From: Candidatus Omnitrophota bacterium
GTDB taxonomy: Bacteria; Omnitrophota; Koll11; Gygaellales; JAQTUY01
Direction of reading: 5' to 3'
Length of the DNA stretch: 11,915 bases
NCBI GenBank assembly: GCA_028707105.1
Contig: JAQTUY010000033.1
Coordinates: 2,417-14,331 of the forward strand
The position numbers were made by a program, and so were the translations under genes. Each line of letters begins with the position of its first letter. The stretch's first letter is position 1. Positions 1 to 11,915 of the stretch are shown here, one piece after another. The notes beneath the pieces were generated by a model, which made no database searches, had not been told where the DNA came from, and saw nothing but the letters and a program-made list of their open reading frames with translations.

Positions 1-800
1 TTCGACATTGGGTTGTTCGGCTACCTGCTGCGCTCCGTTATCCTCCATGACTATCAGTAAGCCGCCCTTAAGCCCCGGAGCGCGAGGGCAAACCTCAGGC
101 TGAGCATCCAGCCCCTGATCGATGAATTGCCCCAATATTCGCAGGAACATGCGGTCAAACTTAGCCGCATAATTATCAATATTGCGGGTGAAGATCCATT
201 TTTTTCCGGAGTCGATCATGAAGAGAAGTTCGCCGCTCTCCACCATCTGGTGGAAGAATTCCCCGTGGCCCCATGGATCTCTTTCTCCCTCCAGGATAAC
301 GACTTCGGGATTCTTAACTCGGGCCTGCTCGACTTCCTGAGCCAGGGCTAAGGCTTCCCGGTATTGTTGTTCTGTCTTAAATTTCTTAGCGGCGTAAAGA
401 GCCTCCACTTCTGCCGGGGTGCCGACGAATTTAGCTCCTAAGGGCTGATGGAAGAAACGGATCTGCCCTTCCGGTAATCCGTAATATCCGCTAGCAGCCA
501 ATATCGCGTCATGTTCAGGACGATATTGGTCGTTAGATAAAAGCCCGATCGTGTTTTCAAAAACACGGCTGGGAAGCCCCGCGCGAACGGCTTCCTGATC
601 GATCTCTTTTAATAACCGGGATATGCTTATTCCAAACGCATCCAAATAGGTAATGACCTTGCCTTCGACCTCTCCGACAGGAACAGCAGCCTTAGAAAGC
701 AAGGTTTTGCCGCCGATCATCTGTTTGATCCCTTCGGGAGCTTCCCTGAGATTCATACGTGAGCTTGCCCCCGCGATAAGGGCTGTAATATAACCTTCCC
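1..800 (-). other. Protein domain: UDPGP-family nucleotidyltransferase (UDP-sugar pyrophosphorylase type), C-terminally cut
   Basis: Residues about 3705-3971, continuing past base 1. It shows the nucleotide-binding turn LIAGASSRMN (bases 751-780), a form of the 'LxaGxgtRmg' loop, with a following LLSKAAVPVG that carries the expected lysine. Then come VFENTIGLLSNDQ, IRFFHQPLGAKF, the strong family marker DPWGHGEFFHQMV (around 238-279; compare 'P-x-G-x-G-d' in UDP-glucose and UDP-HexNAc pyrophosphorylases) and RNIDNY (169-186; compare 'NxDNL'). These enzymes join UTP and a sugar 1-phosphate to give UDP-sugar and pyrophosphate in the cytoplasm. Fused downstream of a glucan synthase, the likely product is UDP-glucose, the GT48 donor. 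The substrate is not provable because the sugar-binding half is outside the window. Arginine codons here are mostly CGN, unlike the rest of the gene. Confidence 0.75.
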
Positions 801-3800
801 CTTTCAACAAAGAGAGCATCGCCAATCTTTCTAGACGCGCTCCTTCTTCCTCTGCAGCCGTAGTAACGTCCCTAATGTCTTCTTTACGGCTCCCGCGGAA
901 CGGCCTTGTGATCACCGTGGTCTTCAATACCCCATCCCAATACTTATTGCCCAGGCCGACTTCAATGGAACGGGTAGCCGCGAAATCGGATAATAATTCT
1001 CCAATGGAATTACCATCCTTTATCTTTACAATATCGGTATTTTTTAAGAACTTATAAATTCTTTCAAGGATGGCCGAATTATTAACAAGGAACTCTACGC
1101 TCATTGAGACGGCTAAACCGTCATCCGTCAAGCCGCAATTGGCATGCGCTATGAGATCATGGTGTCCGACGAACAGAGCGTATTCCAACGGGATGTATTC
1201 GCTCAGGAGTATAATCTGGATATGGATAGTATTGGAAGCGGGGACATACCATATGGTAGATACTCCGGCCCGGACCGGCTCGATAACGAGATTGACGTTC
1301 AACGGAGGCCCGGTGATATAGTGGGCCGCAAAGCCGATTATTTCCTTGAGCCTGGCCTGGTATTCTCCGGCCAGTGATACGAAATTCTCGGCCTTCTCTA
1401 TGCTGTAGCTCCCGGTGCCCTGGATGGTCACGATGCCCAGGTCGATAGCCGTAAAGCTTTCTAACGACGCCGGAACTTTCGCGACAGCGTCCGGAGCATT
1501 CTGAGGCATGCTCGGTTTCTTGTCATCAATAACTTGAGGCGGGATGCGTAATTTGCTTTTAATATAATCAAATATGGCCTGCTTAGTCTCTTCAGGCAGG
1601 TTATCCTTTGCAAACGAATATTCCCTACGGCCATCTACTGCCCATAAAATAGCCGCTTTAAATAATCCGGCACGCCATGGTAAACAATACTTATAAAAAT
1701 CATGCTTTTTCAGCAGATCTTCCAATGATTTTTCTCTGGAATCTTTAGCTTCTGCCGAATGTGACTCTAACCACGTATTATACTGAGAGATGATCTCGTC
1801 GAACATACGCAGGGTCTCTTGAACGGCTTCAAGTAAAGACTCATTCTTGGCAACTTTCGTTTTCAGCCCAGGCAGGGCTTTTTCGGCCCTCTCACTGTTC
1901 AAAGCGGACATATCGGCGTTCAGGTCCGCAATTACCTTGGCGGCGATCTCTTTAGTTTCATCCGGAATGGAGGCTAATAACTTTTTAGCAGATTGGATGG
2001 TATTCAAGATCTCTCTGTGCTCAATAATTGCCTGGCAAATGGACTCAATTTTTACTCTATTGCGCTCCGTGCTTAAAACGGACATATCGGCGTTTAGGTC
2101 CGCAATTACCTTGGCGGCGATCTCTTTAGTTTCATTCGGGATGACCGCTAAATCATTGAAAGCGGAATATATAACTTCAATCCTGTATTTTGTATCAAAA
2201 ATATCTTCCATAACAGACCGAATATGATTTTCATCCCAACCGGCCCAAATAAGGTTCTTAAGGATGGTCATCTTATCATTTAATTCAGAAACAAGCTTAC
2301 CGAATAAAGGATTCTCTAGGAAGGAACGGTTATTCATATAGTCTCTTCTGCTTGAATAGACAACCGTCTCAATAGCTTTCATTATGAATTCCGGAGCTTG
2401 CTTTGATCCATCGAATAGTTTCTCCCGGGCAACGGGTTTTTCATTTTCCGGAATCAGTTTTATAAACTCTCCCATCAATAAAGGCGCAACGCTGGACTTT
2501 AAGTATCTGTACGTATTTTGAGCCTGGATCAATTCCTTTCTGATATCTATATAGAACTTCTCGCTTATCGTCAGCTCAAGGCGGGCGAAGGAATCCTTCA
2601 AGTCTTCCAGGGCGTGACGGACCTTCAGGTCGATATCTTGTCCGGCGAACGCTTTTTCCGTAGCGTCAACCCATTCCTTCATTTCCCAAACCAGCTTCCT
2701 GGACTGGTTGAATTCCCAATTCACGCTAAAGTTCCTGGCGATAGCAAATGCCGCTATATTCAGGACGGCTACGTAATAAGGAGCGAAAATCACGGCAGGT
2801 ATTATGGGTAATGCCAGCAGGAGCGGCACGTATTTTATCGATACCATTTTCGCGCCGAAATCAAGCGCGTTCTTGGACCTGACGGCTTCGCGTACGTCCT
2901 TTATCTGCACGTAGAGGGCGACTAAGCCTATCGCTCCCAGGATAACGTTCCTGGCTATAACAAAATAACCGATATCGGTCGAAGGCGGCAGTATGGAAGC
3001 AGGCGAAGGAATAAAGATAAAATTCAATAATAATACGAATGACAGCCAGAAAGCCCTGTTGCTGTTGGAGAAATAACGCAGATGAGCGATCTTCTTTATA
3101 GCGAAACGCTCCATGAATTTCACGTTCGTTCCGAACGCCCATGCAAAACCAACGGCTATAAGAATAGCCAACGGCCAGGGAATATAAAGCCCGCCGCAGG
3201 CTAACATGGATGCCGCTATGATGCCGGCTACAGCGCCAGCGACCGAGCTTAAGCCCGATTTGGCCCTGCTCGCGCGGTCATTATTGACCACACCGTAAGA
3301 AGAATTGAACACGAACGAGAACATCAGGAATGACAGGGCGACGCAGGTCGCCAGGAAAGGAGCCATATATGAATACAGGTTCATATTATGCTTGAACATC
3401 GCGATTTGCAGCACAAAGAGGAAGATCACGCCCATACGCATAGGCACTTTCCAGAACGCCTGGAGGTCTTTACTGGTCTGCGCGTCGCGCATCGACCTTC
3501 CGGGGCTGGTGACAAACAAGGTCGTCGTACCTCTAGTCATACCGTCGGCCGCGTTCTGGCTGAATGTAGGAAGCTGTCCGCCCGGAAACCAGAGGATGTT
3601 CTTGAAGGTTATCTTGGCCAGGTGGCCGATGCCTTCCCAGAGGCCTTTGCCTCTTATGAACAATATGGCCATGGTGGTCTGGATAGCCTGATTATGCAGC
3701 AGGCCGAAGATAACGAACGCGAAAGCTCCGGATAGTAACGAGAAAGGATCCATACCGAACATTGCGATAAAAGGCAGCAACATCGTGCAGACCACAGCCC

Positions 3801-6800
3801 AGATGGACATGGTGGTTAAGAAGCCGCCGCGCATCAAGCGGGCGTCCTTCTCAGCCCAGGATATATCGCTGGAGAAGAAATAGCTCTGGACGAAGTAGGT
3901 ATTTTCCAGCTGGATGAAGCCTTTTGCCCATCTTCCGAAAGCGGCCTTGGTCTGCTCATTGCTCACCTCTCTCTGCTTGGTGAGCCTTAAATACCTGGCG
4001 AATATGCCCTTGCCCTTGCCTTGAGGACGTCTCTGGATATATATATTCAAGGCTGTGATCAAGTCTTCGGAAATAATGGTCTTGCGCACGGCCGATGACT
4101 CGATTGTGGCGTCGGAACGGACCATACAGTGCCATCCGTAATGGCCCGGTCCCCAAAGCTTACTCTCTCCGTATAAGAAGACCCTGCCGAATCCCTGCTC
4201 TGCCAGGGCGGCCGTCTTGGTCATACTGTTGTAGTCCTTATTTGACATATCCCTTTCAGGCAGGCCGATATCAACATCCTGGTCGGCGAACTCGCACACA
4301 AAGTTCAGGAACCTTCTCTGGGAAGATTTATCCGCGCGGCAGCCCTTTTCATAGTTGATCCAGATGTCGGATGACAATACGCGAGGAAGCGAAGCTGCCT
4401 CGGTAGCGGCCTTGTTCATCTGCCTGGCCGCGGAAATAGGACGCCAGATACTCTTATCTTCGCAAAGCTTCTTGACCTCGGATCTGTCAACGGGCGTAGG
4501 CACTACCAGGAACACTTTTCTGACCGCCAGCTTCCTCACGAACGCGTCGGTATTCGCGTCCGACCTGTCCAATCCGTAATAATCGGTGATCCATTCTTCC
4601 ATGCAAGCGCGGATATAGACCATTTGCATAATGGTAGGCATGACCGTAGGTTCATATTCGTTGGCCCAGTTCTCTAAGGCTTTGATGACTTCTTTGGCGG
4701 ACTTCTCTTCGCTGCCGGTGTAATTACGGAAGGTCTCGATATCCCTGCCCTCTTTGATTAAGGCATCAAGCAGGCTGTTGTAGGCTTCAAAATCGTTGGC
4801 CTGGGCGGCGGTCATCAGCCTATGCTCATATCCGGCGAGCAGCTTGCCTTCCTTGACGTAAGCGCCCACAAACTCCTTGTAGCTATCGTAATAACTTTCC
4901 CTGAGGAATTCCAGCAGGCTGATGGCCAGGCCGTTCTCCGCGGCCACCCTGACTATCTCTTCAAGCTTTTCCTTAGGCAGCACCTTCTTGACCGCCTCGG
5001 ACACGATTAAGACCTTATCGCTCTTGGCTTCCTTCTTGATCTCTTCCAGTATTAATTTCTGAGTCTTCTTATTTACGACCTTTCTGTAAAGATCGGGCCT
5101 CTTGGTCATCAGTGTAATAATGGCTACCTCTAACGACGGCTTGAGCAGCTCCGCGGCCTTCAAGTCAAATGCCTCATTCACCAAGGGGTGTAATAAGGCC
5201 ACGTTGGGCATATCCACTAACGGAGCTAAGAGCCCGGGCATTTCCTGCTTGTCTTTGGCCATAGCGAACGCGGTATAGGCGCCTTCCACAAAATAGGTAT
5301 AAGCCCAATTTCCCAGCTTGATCATGCCGTAGAGGAAGATGAAGCTGAACGGCACGACAAACAGCTCCGGCTTATCAATAACGTAGGGTATGCGGTAAAG
5401 GAAGAAGGCCTTGCCGGCGCTGAAGATGATCGTGTTCCAAGCGATCCACAGGCCGATCTTGGCGAATCCGACCTTCTCTTTTGTTCCGAACAATATTGGC
5501 TTTCCGTTAATATCCTTTTCGAAGGAAAACCAGAATTCCTTGACCGTCTTGAAGAAGCCCAGCCCGTTCTTGATACCGGCGTAAAGTATGTGCAGAAGCG
5601 TAAAGGCGATCATTTCTACGCCGAACATATCCAGCGTCCCGTTGAATATCCAGCTCCAGGCAATGTTGAACAATCCGGCGGAAAAGCCCAATGCCCACAG
5701 TTTCGGGAACATTCCGGCGTCTACTAGACTGGCCCAATCTTTCTTGCCCTTAACGAATTCTTCGCTGAATTTCAGGTATTTGGCCAGGTCAGGCACGCTA
5801 TGCTCGCCGGCAGCCGCGAAAGCCTTATCCTCTATACGGACCCCAGCGGCGCCCTTAGCGATATTCTCAAAATAGGCCTCGCCTATTTTCCTGAAGTAGA
5901 AGTTGACGGCCTCGTCAGGCTGGTACTTGTAAATATTCCTGACGGCCAGGCCTATTTTGCCGAACAACCCGATCCTCCTGGCTATACCCTGATACAGGAA
6001 CATCAAGGAAGCTATCGCCTGGTCGTTCTTGAATACCGCTTCTATTATCTCCCTATTCTTATCGTCGAGCTTCAGGCCGCCGGCGATATACATCTTGGGA
6101 TCGTTGAGCTTCTCCCAGGTAACTTCGCTTCCATCCTTCTTATCGAAGATGGCCGCCCTCTTTGAGCCGTCGGCGAGCGTTATCTCCTTAAAATACAGCC
6201 TGCCTTCGATGGCTTTATCCATCATGAATATCAACAGGTCGGTGAAGTCCTGCCAACGGCTTATGATCGCTTCGGCATTTGCCAGCTCTTCTTTCAAGGC
6301 CTGTTCAGAAGCCTGGAAGGCCTCCGGCATGGCCAGTTTGCCGTCTTTTGTGATGATCTTTACCGATCTATCCAACAGGTATTTTACGAAAGGATACTCG
6401 GTGCCGATAGTGCGCTTCGCCTCGCCCCACAGGTGGGATCTTTCCCAGACAATCTGACGAAGCGTAAGCGTTACGACTTCATCATAGGCGGGGGCTTTGC
6501 CGGCGTGGAATATCTTCTCGATGTGTTTGCCGATGGCCTCTTTCATCCCAACAGGCTCTTTGCTTTCTTCTACAAGCATGGAAACCAGCCTGTCGACTAC
6601 GGGCTTACCGTAAGCATTCTCAAAGGCTTCAAAAACCAGCATATCCGCGAACAACGCGGCCATTTCGCCGTCCTTGAATTTTACCTGGCCCTTATCGATC
6701 AACACGACATTACAGAAAGTAAAGTCCGCGTTCAAAGTAATGGTGCGGTTGGCCATATCGACTTCGAATTTATCAAGCGCAGCCCTGATGGCTTCTTCTA

Positions 6801-9800
6801 ACTTTTCCTCGCTGATCAACCCTTCGGCAACCGCCTTGATCCAGATCTTCGCTGCTGTTACCTTTAAGGATGCTACCGGCTTTCCCCTGATGATGGAAGC
6901 CACGTTCTTCAGGCCTACCGTATTCCTGGGCCTGCGCTCGCTGACTATCTGACGGATAATATCGTTCTTTTCTTTGGTAGAAAGGGCGCTGAATTTACGG
7001 CTGATATACGTATCTACGGTGCTTTCGATCAAGTTCTCTACGCGCCCTGCCGCGTTCTCGGCCGGTATCTCGGCCCTGCGTACGGCGTTTTTCGCGCCCC
7101 TGCTGCGGATGGAACGGGCAGCCGCGAATATGCCCGCGATCACGGCGGCAAGAACTCCGGCGATCACGGCGAGGCGCACCCCGAAAGGCCAGTTGAATGC
7201 CAGGACCGGCGCCTTGATGTCGGCGGAAGGCTTATTGATCGCCAGCTTGCCGGACTTGATCATTTCCTTAAATTTCTCGCCGCCGTACGGCTGGTTCGGG
7301 ATAAACCCGGTTTCCGCGTACACGGCCTGCGAAAGAGTGATTATAGACACATAGCTATTAGTTCCTTTTTTGCCGGACACGGGCGAGGCGAAATAGTGCC
7401 CGGTCTCGATAGCCTCGGTCAAGAGCTTGCCGTTCCTTACGGATATGGCGTACGGCAATAATCCGGCCTTGCCGAGTTTGCTGTTCCTTAAATTGCTCAT
7501 ACTGGCGGAGAAATACTCGATAACGTCGCTGTAGTATTTAGCCAGGCCCTTCTCTTTCAAGGCCGCGGCGTTATCCCCGGATGCCTCAAACTTGGCCGCC
7601 TTGACTTCATGCCAGCCCTTCATTACCCAGCCTACCTGGATGAGATAATAGCTCTGCTCGGGGAATATCGCGTCTTCCCTGCCCATCGGGATATTGAAAT
7701 CTACGCCCGCCACTTTGCCGACGCCCGGAACGTTAACCCGGACAACGAAGAGGGACATAGCCTTTTTGAACATATCATCGGGGTCGACCCCGTAAACGGA
7801 CTGGATTTCCTCCGGCCCGACGGTGCTCAGCAACCATAACGGGCAGTCGGAAGCAAAGCTTAAGTCCGGTATCAATGTGTCTTTTAGCTTGCCGTTCTCG
7901 ACCATCTTGACCTCCATCATTCCTCTATACACGAGATTGTTCTTCTTATCGATGGCGTGGTCCATCCAGTTACTCTTGGCGCTGGTGAACGCGGACTTCA
8001 CGGCCTGGGCGTTATCCTCATAAACCTCATCTATGACGCTCTGTATCTCGGGCATGCTCAACATATCCAGCACGCCTTCTACGGCGTCGATGTTCTCTTC
8101 CGCGGAATAGTGTTTCTTCCACTCTTTATCGCTGGGCCCGAGTATAAATCCGCCGTTGCCGTTATGCAGATGCTTGACCAGGTTTTCGGCGATATTCAAG
8201 ACCGTGTTCATATGCGACTTATCGCCGGTAAGGAGATAGTAATTGATTCCCTCCATGATATAGAACGAATTGGAACCGGTGCGCACGAGCGGGCTGATGG
8301 GCAGGCTGGTCACGTTATCGAATTCGACGGGCTTGCCGGTCCTTATATCATAGCTCTGGTAGAACAGCCCGGTCTTGGGATCCCTTTCGGCGCGGTCAAA
8401 GAACATAAGTATCTTCTTGGCCGAATCGGTATCGCCCGTCAATACCAGCTGGGGTATGAGCATAGCATTGTCGAAAGTAAAGGACTGGTAAGGATGCTCG
8501 GAGCCCGGATGGCTGGCGTAAATGTAGGTCTTCTGACCCTTGAGCTTCTCTAATCCTTCGCGGTTATTCTTGAATTCCTGGGCCTTGAAATTCACGAATT
8601 CGGGGCTGATCGCGCCGTTATGGACGTATTTGTTGAATACCGGCAGGTGGATCACCCTGTTCAACAGGGCCTCGGGAATGATGGAAATATCCTTGAGTAT
8701 TTCGCTGACCTGCTTGGATTCGAACGCGGGGTAGTCCAAGTAATCCTTTTTGACCATCTTGCCGTTGCCGTCAAGTTCGCCGAACAGCAGCCTGGGCAGC
8801 AGGTCTATAAAGTTATTGTATCGTCTGTTGTATAACCTGTTAAACTGGGCGTCCAGGATGTTGTTATCTTTCAGGTAAGGCAGAAAGATATTGTTGCCCT
8901 GTTTTCTCCATTCGATCGCGTCGGGCGTAAGAGAACTGATATTGAAGGCTTCTTTTATGGTGTATCCGGTCAGCGGGTCTACCCTGGAAAGGATGATGAA
9001 AGGATACTTCTCTTCGATGGCGTATAACGTCGGGCTGCCGCCGCTCCTGTAATCGACGGACATCAGAGGGGTCTTGCCGCCCTTATCATAATAGAGCCTT
9101 ACCACCGCGGTCTTCGGCACGCCTTTTTCGCTGTCATAAGTATATTCAAAGGTATCGAACCAGCGGATGTTGCCTCCGACATAGACCGTGCGCACGTTGC
9201 TATCACCGGTCTGCCTGTTGACGAATACGTCGCCCCTGCTGCCCGTTCCCACGCTCTGGAGCTTTTCTTTCTTGCCGGCTAAGTATTTTTCGACATGGTA
9301 GGAAATATAAGATAAGAATCCCGCTTTCTCGCTCCTCAGGTCGCCCTTACCCAGAAACTTCATCTCGCTCACCTGGAACCTCGCATCTTCCCGGGCGTTC
9401 CTGGCCTTATAAACAAGGCTAATGCTCTTTATATTGGAAATATCCAGCCCTTCCAGGCGAAGCTGCTCGATGGATATAACCCTCACGAAATCCCTGCCGT
9501 TATTCTGGTCTTCCATGTTCACAATAACGCCTGAGCTTCTATAGGGGTTCTTCTTTTCCGCGTAATATAATTTGTTGCCAGGGTAAGCGCCCCAGAAGGC
9601 AAGCTGCTTGCCTACGGTGACGGCCTTGCCCCTGTTATCCTTTACGACCACGTTGTAATCGACGTTATCGTTGCCCTGAGGCTTGAGCAGGAAATAAAGG
9701 AACTCATATCTGGAAATATCCTTTTTCGCGAAGGGCAGGGCGAACGCGTGATCCTTGTTCTCCGACGCGGCGCTTAAGGCTGTCTTATAATAATGACCGG

Positions 9801-11915
9801 GCAGGTCCTTGACGTTGAAATAATAGGAGAAGTCAAAAACATCGTTCCCGGAAGCATCTTTCTTGATTGCCATCTCCAGGGCCATCTCGCCGTTCTTATT
9901 AAACCATTGGCGACTGGTATACAAGGCTTCGGAGTTGTGGTTATAATAGCTGACTTCCTTGATGGAATAATACTGCTCGGCCACTCCGGGCAGATACGGA
10001 TTTTCCATCACTCCGGCCGAGTGCTTTTTGCTAACGACCACCGGCGTATTCGATTGTCTAAATCCCATCTTTCCATCGCGCCCGATCAGGGTCGAATGGA
10101 AAGCCAGGTCAAAGGTCTTGCTTAATTCCTCATCGCCATACTTGTCATAGGTGATGTCGGTGCGCAGCTGGCTGTACTCATCCAGCCTGCTGACGACCTG
10201 ATCGCGATAATACTGCTCGCTATACTTGCCCTTGACTATACTGCTGAAATCTTCGTAATTCGACCAGTCCTTCCTCTGCGCTTCCACGCCGACTATCTTG
10301 TCTGCGCCGTTAATCTTAACAATAAACCAGCCCTTAGTCTCGGACTCGCTCCTCAGCTCGCCCCTGTTCTCAGGCTGAGCGGCATCGTATATATAGGTCC
10401 TGCTGGCGCTGGACCTGGCATGCCTTGACCATTCCTGGGTCCTGTCATATTCGAATTCAGTGACTTCCTGTCTGATAAATCCGCCTTTAACGTTATCGAA
10501 ATAGCCGCTGTACTTCTTCTCCAACAAGCCGGCGCCGTCCTTGACTTCCTGGGAGCAATAGGTATAATTTTTACCGCTCTTTCTCTCATCGTTTATCTGG
10601 TAGACCAGATGATAGCCCTTCTGGTCCACATACGAAGCTACAGGGCTAGAAGTGGTTAAAAGCTCTTCTTTACCGGTCTTGGAATCGACTAAATACGTCC
10701 TGACCTTATCCGCTATGCCGTATCTGCCGTATTCGCTGCCGTAGAAGAACCGGCTTATCTTCTTGCCGTCCGGGACTATCTGGAATTCCCCGGCGTTATC
10801 GCCTAAAACCATCATATCATTGTCTACGATCATCCCCTTGGGTAAGCCGGTGGATAACTCATAGATCACGGTCTCTTTTCTGTCAAACCTGTCCCTGCTG
10901 CCGATGAAATAGCTCTTCTCTTCGGTGAGCTCGTCGTTCTCCTTGCTGTATCCGACGGTCCTGGCAATAAAATCAAGCTCACCTTTCTTGGGAGCCTCGC
11001 GGGTACCTAAATTGATCCAGCCTATGGTGCCTTTTCTGACTTTGCCAAAGTGAAAATCTTCCTTGTAGGAGATCGCGGTAATACCCTTATCAGTGAACAC
11101 CTTGATGACCCTGCCGAACGGATCAAAGGTCATATTCTCTATATAGCGCAGCTTGCTTTCGGCGCCTTCGTAGTACGATATAGTCTTGTTCAGCTTCAGT
11201 TCTTTCGCGGCAGACTTTTCATTATAAGAAAGGGTTTCGGAAGCGGAATATATCGGCCCTTTCTTCGGGTTGCGGCGGTCGCCGGATAAGTTCACGTAGG
11301 TCTGGCTGCTCTTCTCGATGCCGTTCTCATCATACACAAAGCCTTCGGTTATCAACCTGTCGGTGACCTCTCTGGTTATCCTGGTCAAACCGTTTTCCAG
11401 AGACATGTAGGTGATCACCGACTTCATACCGGTGGTAGTATCTATCTTCTCCCTGGTCAGGCCGTCGCGCGGGAAATTGATAACTACCGTGAAATTCCTG
11501 TTATTATAAGTTACCTTATATCTCCAGCTGGCGAACTCTATCTCTTTAGCCAGCTTCATGGACAGTTGGTCAACCCGGTCAAGTTCTTTCAAGATAGGCT
11601 CGGTCCCGGACAGCAGCTTCTTTTCGCCGGTCTCGTTATCGATGTACATTACGCCGGCGTTCATCCATCCCTTAAATGAAGCGTATTTCTCCATATCTTT
11701 CTTAACATCTATCTTACCCTGTTCATAAGCTAAACGGCCGGGTATCAGGACTTCTCCCTTTTTCCAATTCTTATAATAAGGAAGCGGGGAAACCCTGTTC
11801 TTATCCATGGGGTGATCTCCGATCCTGGCTATATCACCCTTCTTCAGGATCTCCATAAAGTACGCTTCAGTCGGATATTTCGTCCCGATACCGTCGCCAA
11901 GCACTTCATCATGGG
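1..11915 (-). CDS. Giant multidomain membrane glycan-synthesis protein (partial at both ends)
   Basis: Seen: triplets taken from base 1 contain no TTA, CTA or TCA, so the minus strand reads through 3,971 codons with neither a start nor a stop in the window. The translation is coherent throughout. In order it holds a beta-rich Tyr-Asp-like region, a carbohydrate-binding-like jelly roll, a six-hairpin glycosidase-like domain, a transmembrane helix, a helical region, a GT48-like glucan synthase core between two membrane-helix clusters, a coiled-coil-like stretch, a zincin-like domain and a UDPGP-type nucleotidyltransferase. Inferred role: synthesis of a nucleotide sugar, its polymerisation at the inner membrane, and handling of the glucan outside. 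The true start lies upstream of base 11915 and the stop beyond base 1. Length alone far exceeds FKS1 or callose synthase, which are about 1,900 residues. No operon partner or regulatory signal is visible. Best guess for host is Omnitrophota. The single frame is near certain; the functional model is moderately supported. Confidence 0.95.
800..1540 (-). other. Protein domain: small zincin-like alpha/beta module, function unknown
   Basis: Residues about 3459-3704. A helix (AENFVSLAGEYQARLKEIIGFA) is followed by strands VNLVIEP and TIWYVPASNTIHIQIILL, then a helix with FVGHHDLIAHANCGLTDDG (bases 1123-1173). This strand-then-helix order is that of zinc metallopeptidases, in which the helix carries HExxH. 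Here the corresponding stretch is HHDLIAH, which breaks the HExxH spacing, so it is either a degenerate zincin or an unrelated fold. It leads through the helical stretch FAATRSIEVGLGNKYWDG and a charged helix (VTTAAEEEGARLERLAML) straight into the nucleotidyltransferase and may be its N-terminal adaptor. I do not assign a function. Confidence 0.35.
1901..1977 (-). repeat. Direct repeat copy 2 (protein order) of about 77 bp
   Basis: This copy encodes PDETKEIAAKVIADLNADM and what follows (SAL). It matches the copy at 2075-2151 with about seven mismatches in 77 bases, at an offset of exactly 174 bases (58 codons), so the frame is kept. Most mismatches are at the edges or at third codon positions. 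Confidence 0.9.
2075..2151 (-). repeat. Direct repeat copy 1 (protein order) of about 77 bp
   Basis: This copy encodes PNETKEIAAKVIADLNADM and what follows (SVL). It is the partner of the copy at 1901-1977, 174 bases away. The near identity of the DNA, and not only of the protein, indicates a recent duplication or gene conversion inside the helical region. Confidence 0.9.
2735..3825 (-). other. Second membrane cluster (nine or ten helices), GT48-like channel region
   Basis: Residues about 2697-3060. Hydrophobic segments: LTTMSIWAVVCTMLLPFIAM, LLSGAFAFVIFGLLH, VPMRMGVIFLFVLQIAMF, YMAPFLATCVALSFLMFSF, AVAGIIAASMLACGGLYI, PLAILIAVGFAWAFG, AFWLSFVLLLNFIFI, YFVIARNVILGAIGLVALYV, and VPLLLALPIIPAVIF followed by VAVLNIAAFAI. 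A cytoplasmic loop carries RGKGLWEGIGHLAKITFK (bases 3601-3654) and GMTRGTTTLFVTSPGR (3493-3543). In position and pattern these recall the GT48 phrases 'eRGvWkaxxRffrhl' and 'GGARYxsTGRGFaxxripF', between the same helices. In FKS1 this cluster forms the glucan exit path. An even helix count would return the chain to the cytoplasm, as the downstream nucleotidyltransferase needs. I cannot settle nine against ten by eye. Confidence 0.7.
3840..5215 (-). other. Protein domain: GT48-like 1,3-beta-glucan synthase core
   Basis: Residues about 2234-2692. I recall several conserved GT48 (FKS1/callose synthase) signatures and find variants of them in the same order. MPNVALLHPLVNE (bases 5173-5211) matches the 'MPxFtVLiPhYsE' entry. 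SLLEFLRESYYDSYKEFV (4867-4920) matches 'tLLEYLkqlhpvEWdcFv'. WANEYEPTVMPTIM followed by VYIRA (4606-4668) matches 'WaSLRsQTLyRTisGfMnYsrA'. RKVFLVV matches 'RKFkFLV'. DMSNKDYNSMTKTAALAEQ matches 'DmNQDNYxEEAlKmRnlLeE'. GHYGWH (4129-4146) matches 'HYGHPD', and ISEDL (4060-4074) matches 'LSEDI'. YLRLTKQREV matches 'YiQVGKGRDv'. Each match is partial, so this is a remote homologue. Members of the family join UDP-glucose units into a beta-1,3-linked chain. Losses at HPD and GRD (here WHC and QRE) leave activity uncertain. A GT2 synthase is the alternative. Confidence 0.6.
5300..5700 (-). other. First membrane cluster (four helices)
   Basis: Residues about 2072-2205. Four hydrophobic segments are readable: LWALGFSAGLFNIAWSWIF, VEMIAFTLLHILYAGI, IGLWIAWNTIIFSAGKAFFL and LFVVPFSFIFLYGMIKLGNW. 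A polar loop containing FEKDINGKPILFGTKEK separates the second and third. An even number of crossings keeps the following domain on the cytoplasmic side. The cluster lies just before the GT48-like core, where 1,3-beta-glucan synthases have their N-terminal membrane helices. Confidence 0.8.
5710..7110 (-). other. Protein region: long helical cytoplasmic segment, unrecognised
   Basis: Residues about 1602-2068. The sequence is mainly amphipathic helix, for example ENLIESTVDTYISRKF, EKLEEAIRAALDKFEVD, ALKEELANAEAIISRWQDF and NREIIEAVFKNDQAIASL. A short beta section (RTITLNADFTFCNVVLID) lies near residue 1720. It lies between the lone transmembrane helix and the first membrane cluster and should be cytoplasmic. 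FKS1 and callose synthases also carry a large, poorly conserved cytoplasmic region before their first membrane cluster, so this may be its counterpart, but I see no motif proving it. Confidence 0.4.
7117..7179 (-). other. Single transmembrane helix with basic cytoplasmic flank
   Basis: Residues 1579-1599 form an uninterrupted stretch of Val, Ala, Leu, Ile, Gly and Phe (VIAGVLAAVIAGIFAAA at its core). It is followed at once by RSIRSRGAKNAVRR. By the positive-inside rule the N-terminal side, with the glycosidase and binding modules, is outside, and the C-terminal side is in the cytoplasm. This orients the whole protein and puts the later synthase domain on the side where UDP-sugars are present. 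Confidence 0.85.
7230..8535 (-). other. Protein domain: six-hairpin (alpha/alpha)6 glycosidase-like
   Basis: Residues about 1127-1562. Diagnostic phrases of six-hairpin toroids occur in order: SFTFDNAMLIPQLVLTGD (Asp1148, candidate acid), a 'GLFYQSYDIRTGKP' turn, RTGSNSFYIMEGINYYLLTGD (a variant of the common 'RTGxNaWxxxAllyYyxlTGD'), GNGGF, then SAEENIDAVEGVL at bases 8068-8106 (a variant of 'STExNIDAYaxf', Glu1272 or Glu1273 as candidate base). Later helices include EQSYYLIQVGWVMKGWHE and FSASMSNLRNS. Known families with these phrases hydrolyse or modify beta-linked polysaccharides. With the binding module before it and a membrane helix after it, the domain should face the periplasm or cell exterior, and may trim or remodel the glucan. 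The exact family and activity are not assigned; it lacks the features I would expect of GH94. Confidence 0.65.
8536..9345 (-). other. Protein region: beta linker leading into the glycosidase-like domain
   Basis: Residues about 857-1126. The first half is beta-rich, with phrases such as FEYTYDSEKG, VVRLYYDKGG and LYAIEEKYPF. The second half turns helical around YNNFIDLLPRLL and VSEILKDISIIPEALLNRV. Many bacterial (alpha/alpha)6 glycosidases and GH94-type phosphorylases carry a beta sandwich before the toroid, so this may be that N-terminal sandwich plus linker helix. DLDGNG-like loops appear (GELDGNGK), which could bind a metal ion, but this is weak. It has no recognised catalytic motif of its own. 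Confidence 0.4.
9346..9870 (-). other. Protein domain: carbohydrate-binding-like jelly roll
   Basis: Residues about 682-856. The pattern is that of galactose-binding-fold and CBM11/CIA30-like modules: a strand opening with DISRYEFLYFLLK (bases 9682-9720), then DYNVVVKDNRGKAV, then a long variable loop, then LDISNIKSISLVYK, and a closing strand FQVSEMKFLG. In such modules the phrases 'D-s-x-Y-x-x-l-x-f', 'v-x-l-k-D-x-x-G' and 'dlsnIxsIsf' mark the paired strands of the sandwich. It sits directly before the glycosidase-like domain, as accessory binding modules commonly do, and would hold a glycan near that domain. Which sugar it binds, if any, cannot be read from the sequence. The fold assignment is from pattern recognition only. 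Confidence 0.6.
9871..11913 (-). other. Protein region: beta-rich Tyr-Asp-like repeat segment
   Basis: Residues 1-681 of the visible chain. The segment is rich in Tyr, Lys, Asp and Gly, with many short strands joined by turns such as VYDENGIE, ITYDKYGDE, FDPFGRV and YIDNETGE. This is the look of Tyr-Asp (YD/RHS-like) wrapped-sheet or propeller-like repeats, but the period is irregular and I could not define a clean repeat unit. It has no membrane segment and only one cysteine that I noticed (in NYTYCSQEV). Being on the same side of the first transmembrane helix as the glycosidase-like domain, it is probably outside the cytoplasm. It may be a scaffold, a surface-binding region or part of an extended fibre that continues upstream of the window. 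No enzyme motif was recognised. Confidence 0.5.

What the first reader, a model, noticed from the sequence alone, without database searches (positions are those of the whole stretch)
2735..5700. A GT48-like (1,3-beta-glucan synthase) core in a bacterial protein
At least eight short signatures of the FKS1/callose synthase family appear in the right order, including the SLLEFL, W-A...T...R-A, RKxxFLV, DM-x-x-x-D-Y, HYG and SED phrases. The core is framed by an N-terminal and a larger C-terminal membrane cluster as in FKS1, and the loop phrases RGKGLWEGIGHL and TRGTTTLFVTSPGR sit between the expected helices. Characterised GT48 enzymes are eukaryotic; bacterial 1,3-beta-glucan (curdlan) synthases that I know of are GT2. 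This could be a deep bacterial relative or a distant transfer.
Basis: partly seen in the sequence, partly recalled or inferred. Interest (0 to 1): 0.88.

Follow-up and report, generated by a model that had tools for sequence, protein, structure and literature searches.

The report
Callose-synthase-like core in giant bacterial protein
A giant protein of an uncultured bacterium carries what looks like a sugar-polymer-making machine, distantly related by sequence to the callose and cell-wall glucan synthases of plants and fungi; its product has not been tested.

Summary
The window is one open frame on the minus strand (3,971 aa, open at both ends), 50% identical over 3,388 columns to a Candidatus Omnitrophica giant protein. 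The core does not itself match Pfam's GT48 model (PF02364) or a eukaryotic GT48 profile. It is tied to GT48 through other Omnitrophota: PF02364 is over its cut-off in 32 of 384 genomes searched (0 of 14 controls), in frames up to 42,913 aa and 30-34% identical to callose synthases. Intermediates matching both PF02364 and GT2 (PF13632) connect these to the window branch (hhalign 4e-23; GT2 control 3e-6). Key residues hold in 39 aligned rows: Lys 39, ED 38, acidic DAN site 39. A model (pLDDT 69) has the cellulose-synthase-like fold: BcsA is best by Z; Fks1, 33rd by Z, aligns over the most residues. Upstream sits a glycosidase-like toroid, downstream a UDP-glucose-pyrophosphorylase domain; all four branch members carry a sugar-activating domain there. 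Best reading: a self-supplied processive glycan synthase, a new branch between GT2 and GT48. Product and linkage are untested.

The parts
1..11913 (-). one open frame, 3,971 aa, open at both ends; a piece of a giant Omnitrophota protein
   Evidence: 50% identity over 3,388 columns to P0002 (5,641 aa, Candidatus Omnitrophica)
7219..8793 (-). aa 1041-1565, alpha/alpha-toroid-like domain, related to the N-terminal toroid of the GT48-like proteins G120 and G016
   Evidence: hhalign 97.4%, 1.2e-11; PF03663 (GH76) over its cut-off in G120, below it in G016; no Pfam or PDB sequence match for the window piece itself
7150..7206 (-). aa 1570-1588, hydrophobic stretch between toroid and the rest
   Evidence: hydropathy
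5287..5718 (-). aa 2066-2209, N-terminal membrane cluster (about 4 segments)
   Evidence: mean hydropathy of four relatives
3832..5286 (-). aa 2210-2694, GT-A glycosyltransferase domain, GT48-like
   Evidence: profiles; model pLDDT by ten-residue block mostly 70-97 here, 49-64 in a few blocks; folds
5173..5175 (-). Glu2247, opposite Fks1 E851 (E in 35 of 39 rows, D in 3, A in 1)
   Evidence: Fks1 residue from PMC12715860 passages
4411..4413 (-). Lys2501, opposite Fks1 K1082 (39 of 39 rows)
4342..4350 (-). EKG (2522-2524) at the DAN/DxD position; D in 36, E in 3 of 39 rows; another register puts D2528 there
4135..4143 (-). HYG 2591-2593 (H 20/39, Y 38/39, G 39/39)
4063..4071 (-). SED 2615-2617, opposite catalytic E1221-D1222 of Fks1 (E 38/39, D 39/39)
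3964..3978 (-). KQREV 2646-2650, opposite GKGRE/GKGRD of GT48
3919..3936 (-). GRWAKG 2660-2665; K or R at 2661 in 39/39, F or W at 2662 in 36/39; resembles the QxxRW end of GT2
   Evidence: GT2 motif recalled
2728..3831 (-). aa 2695-3062, C-terminal membrane cluster (about 10 segments), with the RGKGLWEGIGHL and TRGTTTLFVTSPGR loops at 3619-3654 and 3496-3537
   Evidence: low model confidence over much of this part
1030..1497 (-). aa 3473-3628, module 43% identical to aa 5811-5964 of the fetched piece of the G070 frame
16..279 (-). aa 3879-3966, part of a UDPGP domain (UTP-glucose-1-phosphate uridylyltransferase), cut by the window end
   Evidence: PF01704 1.8e-10; the 16 PDB sequence matches are all UDP-glucose-type pyrophosphorylases, best 0.001

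Best explanation
A membrane-embedded, processive, inverting GT-A glycan synthase on the lineage that leads to GT48, built into a giant protein of an Omnitrophota bacterium. Shown by computation: homology to bacterial GT48s through intermediates, conserved Lys, acidic DAN-site and ED residues, a GT domain framed by two hydrophobic clusters, a cellulose-synthase-like predicted fold, a toroid-like domain upstream and a UDP-sugar pyrophosphorylase domain downstream. Inferred: the C-terminal domain makes UDP-glucose in the cytosol, the GT domain adds glucose to the growing chain at the membrane face, the chain leaves through the C-terminal membrane cluster, and the toroid on the outer side trims, binds or remodels it. 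The linkage is perhaps beta-1,3 but unproven.
For: PF02364 in 36 of 384 Omnitrophota genomes (32 over cut-off), 0 of 14 controls. A profile of 13 of these cores matches yeast GSC2/FKS1 at 4e-95 to 5e-94 and callose synthases from about 3e-121 down. Window branch vs intermediates 99.5% 4.1e-23 over 440 columns, vs canonical 99.2% 1.4e-19 over 541, vs GT2 87.8% 3.3e-6 over 190; soluble domain alone 4.1e-13, 4.5e-9, 1.8e-5. Intermediate profile scores the window 54.4 bits (1.8e-9 at database size 5.8e9). Single-sequence BLASTP hits canonical GT48 frames G183 at 6e-6 and G360 at 6.5e-7 in a set of 49 sequences. Active-site columns. Fold. Sugar-activating domain downstream in 4 of 4 branch members: UDPGP, PF07959 twice, HAD_2+ROK.
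Against: No PF02364 match for any of the four branch members. The eukaryotic GT48 profile does not find the window. The DAN motif reads EKG. By Z, Fks1 is only 33rd of 50 rows shown, behind BcsA, CesA, hyaluronan and chitin synthases and the mannosyltransferase PcManGT. The 4-row model failed (pLDDT 38), so the fold rests on an alignment that includes GT48 rows. Two branch relatives carry a fucose-pyrophosphorylase-like domain, so the donor need not be UDP-glucose in every member. Which side of the membrane each domain lies on was not predicted by a dedicated tool.
Confidence: 0.78

Rival explanations
1. It is a GT2 synthase (cellulose/hyaluronan/chitin synthase type) that only looks like GT48 because all share one fold.
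For: Foldseek rank 1 and the best VIA Z (24.4) are BcsA, with CesA and hyaluronan synthase also above Fks1 by Z; RW ending; branch vs GT2 hhalign 87.8%.
Against: The GT2 alignment covers 190 columns against 440-541 for GT48 relatives and is at least 13 orders of magnitude weaker; the GT2 profile gives the window -8.6 bits, though 22.7 and 14.5 to its relatives G001 and G272; no GT2 Pfam match; similarity to GT48 continues into the membrane cluster.
Confidence: 0.15
2. A synthase of another polymer (for example a fucose- or HexNAc-containing glycan) built on the GT48-like scaffold.
For: PF07959 fucose pyrophosphorylase domains in relatives G001, G272, G210, G280; divergent DAN site.
Against: In the window itself the activating domain is UDPGP, whose PDB sequence matches are UDP-glucose-type pyrophosphorylases.
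Confidence: 0.35
3. A decayed or inactive synthase domain kept as a scaffold in a giant adhesin-like protein.
For: Giant ORFs of the phylum have been read as coats, adhesins or surface weapons (PMC10066038 and PMC12057145 passages).
Against: Catalytic columns kept across 39 rows; 69% identity to P0002 in the GT core against 50% over the whole alignment.
Confidence: 0.07

Closest known systems
GT48: yeast FKS1/GSC2 and plant callose synthases (PF02364)
   Same: order of core motifs, K1082/E1221-D1222/E851 positions, GT domain between two membrane clusters, longest structural alignment (499 residues)
   Different: no direct profile match, EKG for DAN, about 4+10 rather than 6+11 membrane segments, no FKS1_dom1 match, fused to a toroid and a UDP-sugar pyrophosphorylase domain
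GT2 cellulose synthase BcsA and CesA
   Different: sequence profiles much weaker
Canonical Omnitrophota GT48s found here (G005, G183, G304 and others)
   Same: same phylum, long open frames, same core
   Different: those match PF02364 at up to 6.5e-89 and callose synthases at 30-34% identity (measured on the G005 row); the window branch is separated by a long branch
Omnitrophota intermediates G016 and G120 (frames closed at both ends, 3,046 and 3,129 aa)
   Same: toroid first, GT48-like domain later; YG, SED, KGRE, KW
   Different: they keep DAN and match both PF02364 and PF13632; no nucleotidyltransferase domain in their Pfam scan
Giant proteins of Omnitrophota (Velamenicoccus type)
   Same: very long frames, transmembrane helices
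   Different: the passages read propose coats, adhesion, predation or polysaccharide degradation; here a synthase is embedded

Membership tests
GT48 | PF02364 match over the curated cut-off | tested here: not met
   no match at E<=1 for the window or the four branch members (two of them again at E<=5)
GT48 | homology of the catalytic core to proven GT48s, through intermediates | tested here: met
   intermediates to eukaryotic set 100% 2e-41
GT48 | catalytic ED (Fks1 E1221-D1222) and Lys1082 | tested here: met
   E2616-D2617, K2501
GT48 | DAN motif | tested here: not met
   EKG or, in another register, RAD
GT48 | GT-A domain between an N-terminal and a larger C-terminal membrane cluster | tested here: met
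   about 4 and about 10 segments by hydropathy; Fks1 TM1-6 and TM7-17 (PMC12715860 passages)
GT48 | fold closest to Fks1 | tested here: inconclusive
GT48 | UDP-glucose-dependent 1,3-beta-glucan synthesis | not testable with these tools
   needs an assay
GT2 | match to a GT2 Pfam model | tested here: not met
   none for the window; met by intermediates G016, G120, G253
GT2 | cellulose-synthase-like GT-A fold with channel | tested here: met
   predicted model only
GT2 | QxxRW motif | tested here: inconclusive
   RW at 2661-2662, nearest Q at 2654, so the spacing differs
GT84 | match to the cyclic beta-glucan synthase GT domain | not tested

The most novel reading that the evidence does not exclude
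GT48 arose from GT2 inside bacterial giant proteins of the Omnitrophota lineage. The window branch and the intermediates are living steps of that passage, and the eukaryotic callose and FKS1 synthases come from this bacterial stock by transfer. The window protein is then an all-in-one glycan factory: donor synthesis, polymerisation, export and outside trimming in one chain.
Probability: 0.35. Interest if true: 0.92.

Novelty: new variant of a known kind. Interest (0 to 1): 0.77.

Why it matters
The GT48 and callose synthase trees described in the papers looked at (passages) hold plants, fungi, algae and protists; where the family came from is open. Omnitrophota carry both canonical GT48s and sequences that match GT48 and GT2 models at once, which makes the origin testable by sequence, not only by shared fold. 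It also suggests a synthetic role for giant ORFs that have been read as adhesins or weapons, and offers bacterial GT48s for biochemistry.

Tried and rejected
Direct Pfam, NCBIfam and PDB-sequence searches of the window gave only UDPGP above chance level. A protein search with the four-row branch alignment found nothing, and one viral-contig scan found no relative. The first structure job (4 rows) had pLDDT 38 and pTM 0.27 and was not used. E. coli OpgH gave no match to the branch or the intermediates. GT84 was not tested; no cyclic glucan synthase appears in the rows shown, which proves nothing. Eukaryotic GT48 nests inside canonical Omnitrophota GT48 in the tree, but a tree with the 21 canonical rows as one clade is not rejected (p 0.124), so nested versus sister is open; the root was set on the window branch by choice. 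Contamination by eukaryotic DNA was set aside because of uninterrupted frames up to 42,913 aa and 32 of 384 genomes.

Rows dropped: set F (30 rows) leaves out nine fetched frames (G272, G150, G169, G365, G280, G341, G184, G233, G232b) and never included L061 (G255); the tree also leaves out three fragments (G232a, G321a, G012). Canonical set: 14 rows chosen from F. GT2 control: 14 of 30 loci, the rest dropped because my frame finder gave frames outside 300-800 aa. Structure alignment: 39 of the 42 rows tried.

Full report
What is there. The 11,915-base window is a single open frame on the minus strand, 3,971 codons, open at both ends. Its nearest relative is P0002, a 5,641-aa partial 'hypothetical protein' of a Candidatus Omnitrophica bacterium, 60% identical in the core and 50% identical over 3,388 aligned columns. 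The window is therefore most likely a piece of a giant Omnitrophota protein. Giant ORFs in this phylum are known (PMC10066038 and PMC12057145, passages read).

The observation. In a joint alignment with Omnitrophota GT48s and yeast GSC2 they fall opposite their GT48 counterparts, RKVFLV being shifted by one residue after RK. A hydrophilic domain of 485 residues lies between about four and about ten hydrophobic segments.

Direct tests fail. The window matches no GT model in Pfam or NCBIfam and no glycosyltransferase in the PDB by sequence. A profile of eukaryotic GT48s gives it -5.6 bits.

The link. Omnitrophota genomes carry clear GT48: PF02364 matches 36 of 384 genomes at E<=0.001, 32 over cut-off, best 6.5e-89, and none of 14 control genomes. 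A profile of 13 of these cores matches yeast GSC2/FKS1 at 4e-95 to 5e-94 and finds 1,526 proteins, of which the best 120 are listed: Omnitrophota first, then callose synthases from about 3e-121 down (first named plant one 8.7e-121), 30-34% identical to the G005 row over a little more than half of it. A two-row profile of the window core finds 12 of 384 genomes; nine are weak hits, and seven of those nine lie on PF02364 matches. A four-row profile finds 43 of 334 genomes of the class, every listed match in an open frame of at least 1,321 aa, up to 57,099 aa. By score, only G001, G272 and G150 belong to the window's own branch.

Strength and controls. hhalign of the four-member branch: 99.5%, 4.1e-23 (440 columns) to six intermediates; 99.2%, 1.4e-19 (541 columns) to 14 canonical Omnitrophota GT48s; 87.8%, 3.3e-6 (190 columns) to 14 Omnitrophota GT2s; 0.6% to 20 eukaryotic GT48s; 0.1% to E. 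coli OpgH. With the membrane parts removed the order stays the same: 4.1e-13, 4.5e-9, 1.8e-5, and 0.8% probability for eukaryotes. Reversed profiles and 20 column-shuffled profiles give at most 0.4%. The canonical profile gives the window 37.8 bits; 36 of 80 shuffled and 3 of 4 reversed controls got a score, the highest 2.0. Plain BLASTP finds canonical GT48 frames G183 and G360 at 6e-6 and 6.5e-7 in a set of 49 sequences.

A bridge between families. Intermediates G016, G120 and G253 match PF02364 (9e-25, 8e-28, 6e-22) and the GT2 model PF13632 (3e-11, 4e-9, 1e-6), both over cut-off; G078 and G313 match PF02364 only. The GT48-GT2 kinship known from cryo-EM (PMC12715860, passages read) is thus visible in sequence. 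In a 52-row tree the window branch and the intermediates lie outside a fully supported group of canonical Omnitrophota plus eukaryotic GT48s. Eukaryotes nest within the canonical bacteria in that tree, but a sister relation is not rejected (p 0.124), and the root was set on the window branch.

Active site. In a 39-row alignment the residue opposite Fks1 K1082 is Lys in 39, the ED pair is E in 38 and D in 39, the site opposite E851 is acidic in 38, and the DAN Asp site is acidic in 39. In the window branch this last site reads EKG (three members) or DKG (G150); another register would put D2528 there, so it is unsettled. Fks1 residue roles are from PMC12715860.

Structure. A first model from four rows failed (pLDDT 38). 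A model from 39 rows reaches pLDDT 69 and pTM 0.71; the GT domain is mostly at 70-97 and the last third, with much of the C-terminal membrane cluster, is poor. The 50 Foldseek rows shown are processive synthases: BcsA first (1.5e-7), Fks1 fourth (1.6e-6) with the highest query TM-scores (up to 0.39). By Z, BcsA leads (24.4, 393 residues); CesA, hyaluronan and chitin synthases and the mannosyltransferase PcManGT (21.2) also stand above Fks1 (17.9, rank 33), while Fks1 has the most residues aligned (499; next 412). The fold shows a cellulose-synthase-like enzyme and does not decide between GT2 and GT48. Its alignment contained GT48 rows.

Architecture. Upstream, aa 1041-1565 are related to the toroid of G120 and G016 (97.4%, 1.2e-11); PF03663 (GH76) is over its cut-off in G120 but below it in G016. 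A toroid profile finds 10 of 59 frames, many of which are cut pieces. Downstream lies UDPGP. The other branch members carry PF07959 (G001, G272) or HAD_2 plus ROK (G150) in the pieces scanned, so 4 of 4 have a sugar-activating domain after the synthase. G016 begins with a signal-like hydrophobic stretch before its toroid, which would put the toroid outside and the synthase and nucleotidyltransferase in the cytosol; this topology is inferred.

A caution on P0002. Its contig (L001, 16,980 bases) has identical ends of 87 bases and no stop in frame; closed on itself it is 16,893 bases, a multiple of three. So P0002 has no true start or end there: either a 5,631-codon unit is repeated in tandem inside a still larger gene and was collapsed in assembly, or the circle is an artefact. 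The comparison with the window does not depend on it.

Mechanism. Most likely the C-terminal domain makes UDP-glucose, the GT-A domain polymerises it, the C-terminal membrane cluster exports the chain and the toroid processes it outside. Donor, linkage, processivity and sidedness are inferences.

Known or new. Nine paper searches showed no paper on GT48 in Omnitrophota among the rows listed; several lists were capped. bioRxiv is not held, so the giant-gene preprint cited by PMC12057145 was not read. GT48 in PMC7965971 and PMC3797821, and a callose synthase tree in PMC5683620, are described for eukaryotes in the passages read.

Noticed in passing
L001 1-87 and 16894-16980: The G001 contig has identical ends of 87 bases; the circle of 16,893 bases is a multiple of three and has no stop in the giant frame, so the frame is endless. 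This hints at tandem copies of a 5,631-codon unit collapsed in assembly, or an assembly artefact.
   Followed up: partly
P0015: A PF02364 protein fused to radical SAM is labelled Njordarchaeales archaeon but is 61% identical to the Omnitrophota row L026 over about half of it; perhaps a misbinned contig.
   Followed up: no
L060 (G280) and L025 (G150): Giant frames also hold other enzyme domains: cytidylate kinase and a response regulator (G280), ROK, HAD, HD and a weak RelA/SpoT match (G150), as if operons were fused.
   Followed up: partly
window 1030-1497: aa 3473-3628 are 43% identical to a stretch of the canonical GT48 frame G070, with a GHHDLIAH phrase; a shuffled module of unknown role.
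   Followed up: no
window about 1847-2227: In the coiled-coil-like part the phrase ETKEIAAKVIADLNADMS occurs twice, an internal repeat.
   Followed up: no
L040 (G249): The otherwise canonical GT48 row has KD instead of the catalytic ED.
   Followed up: no
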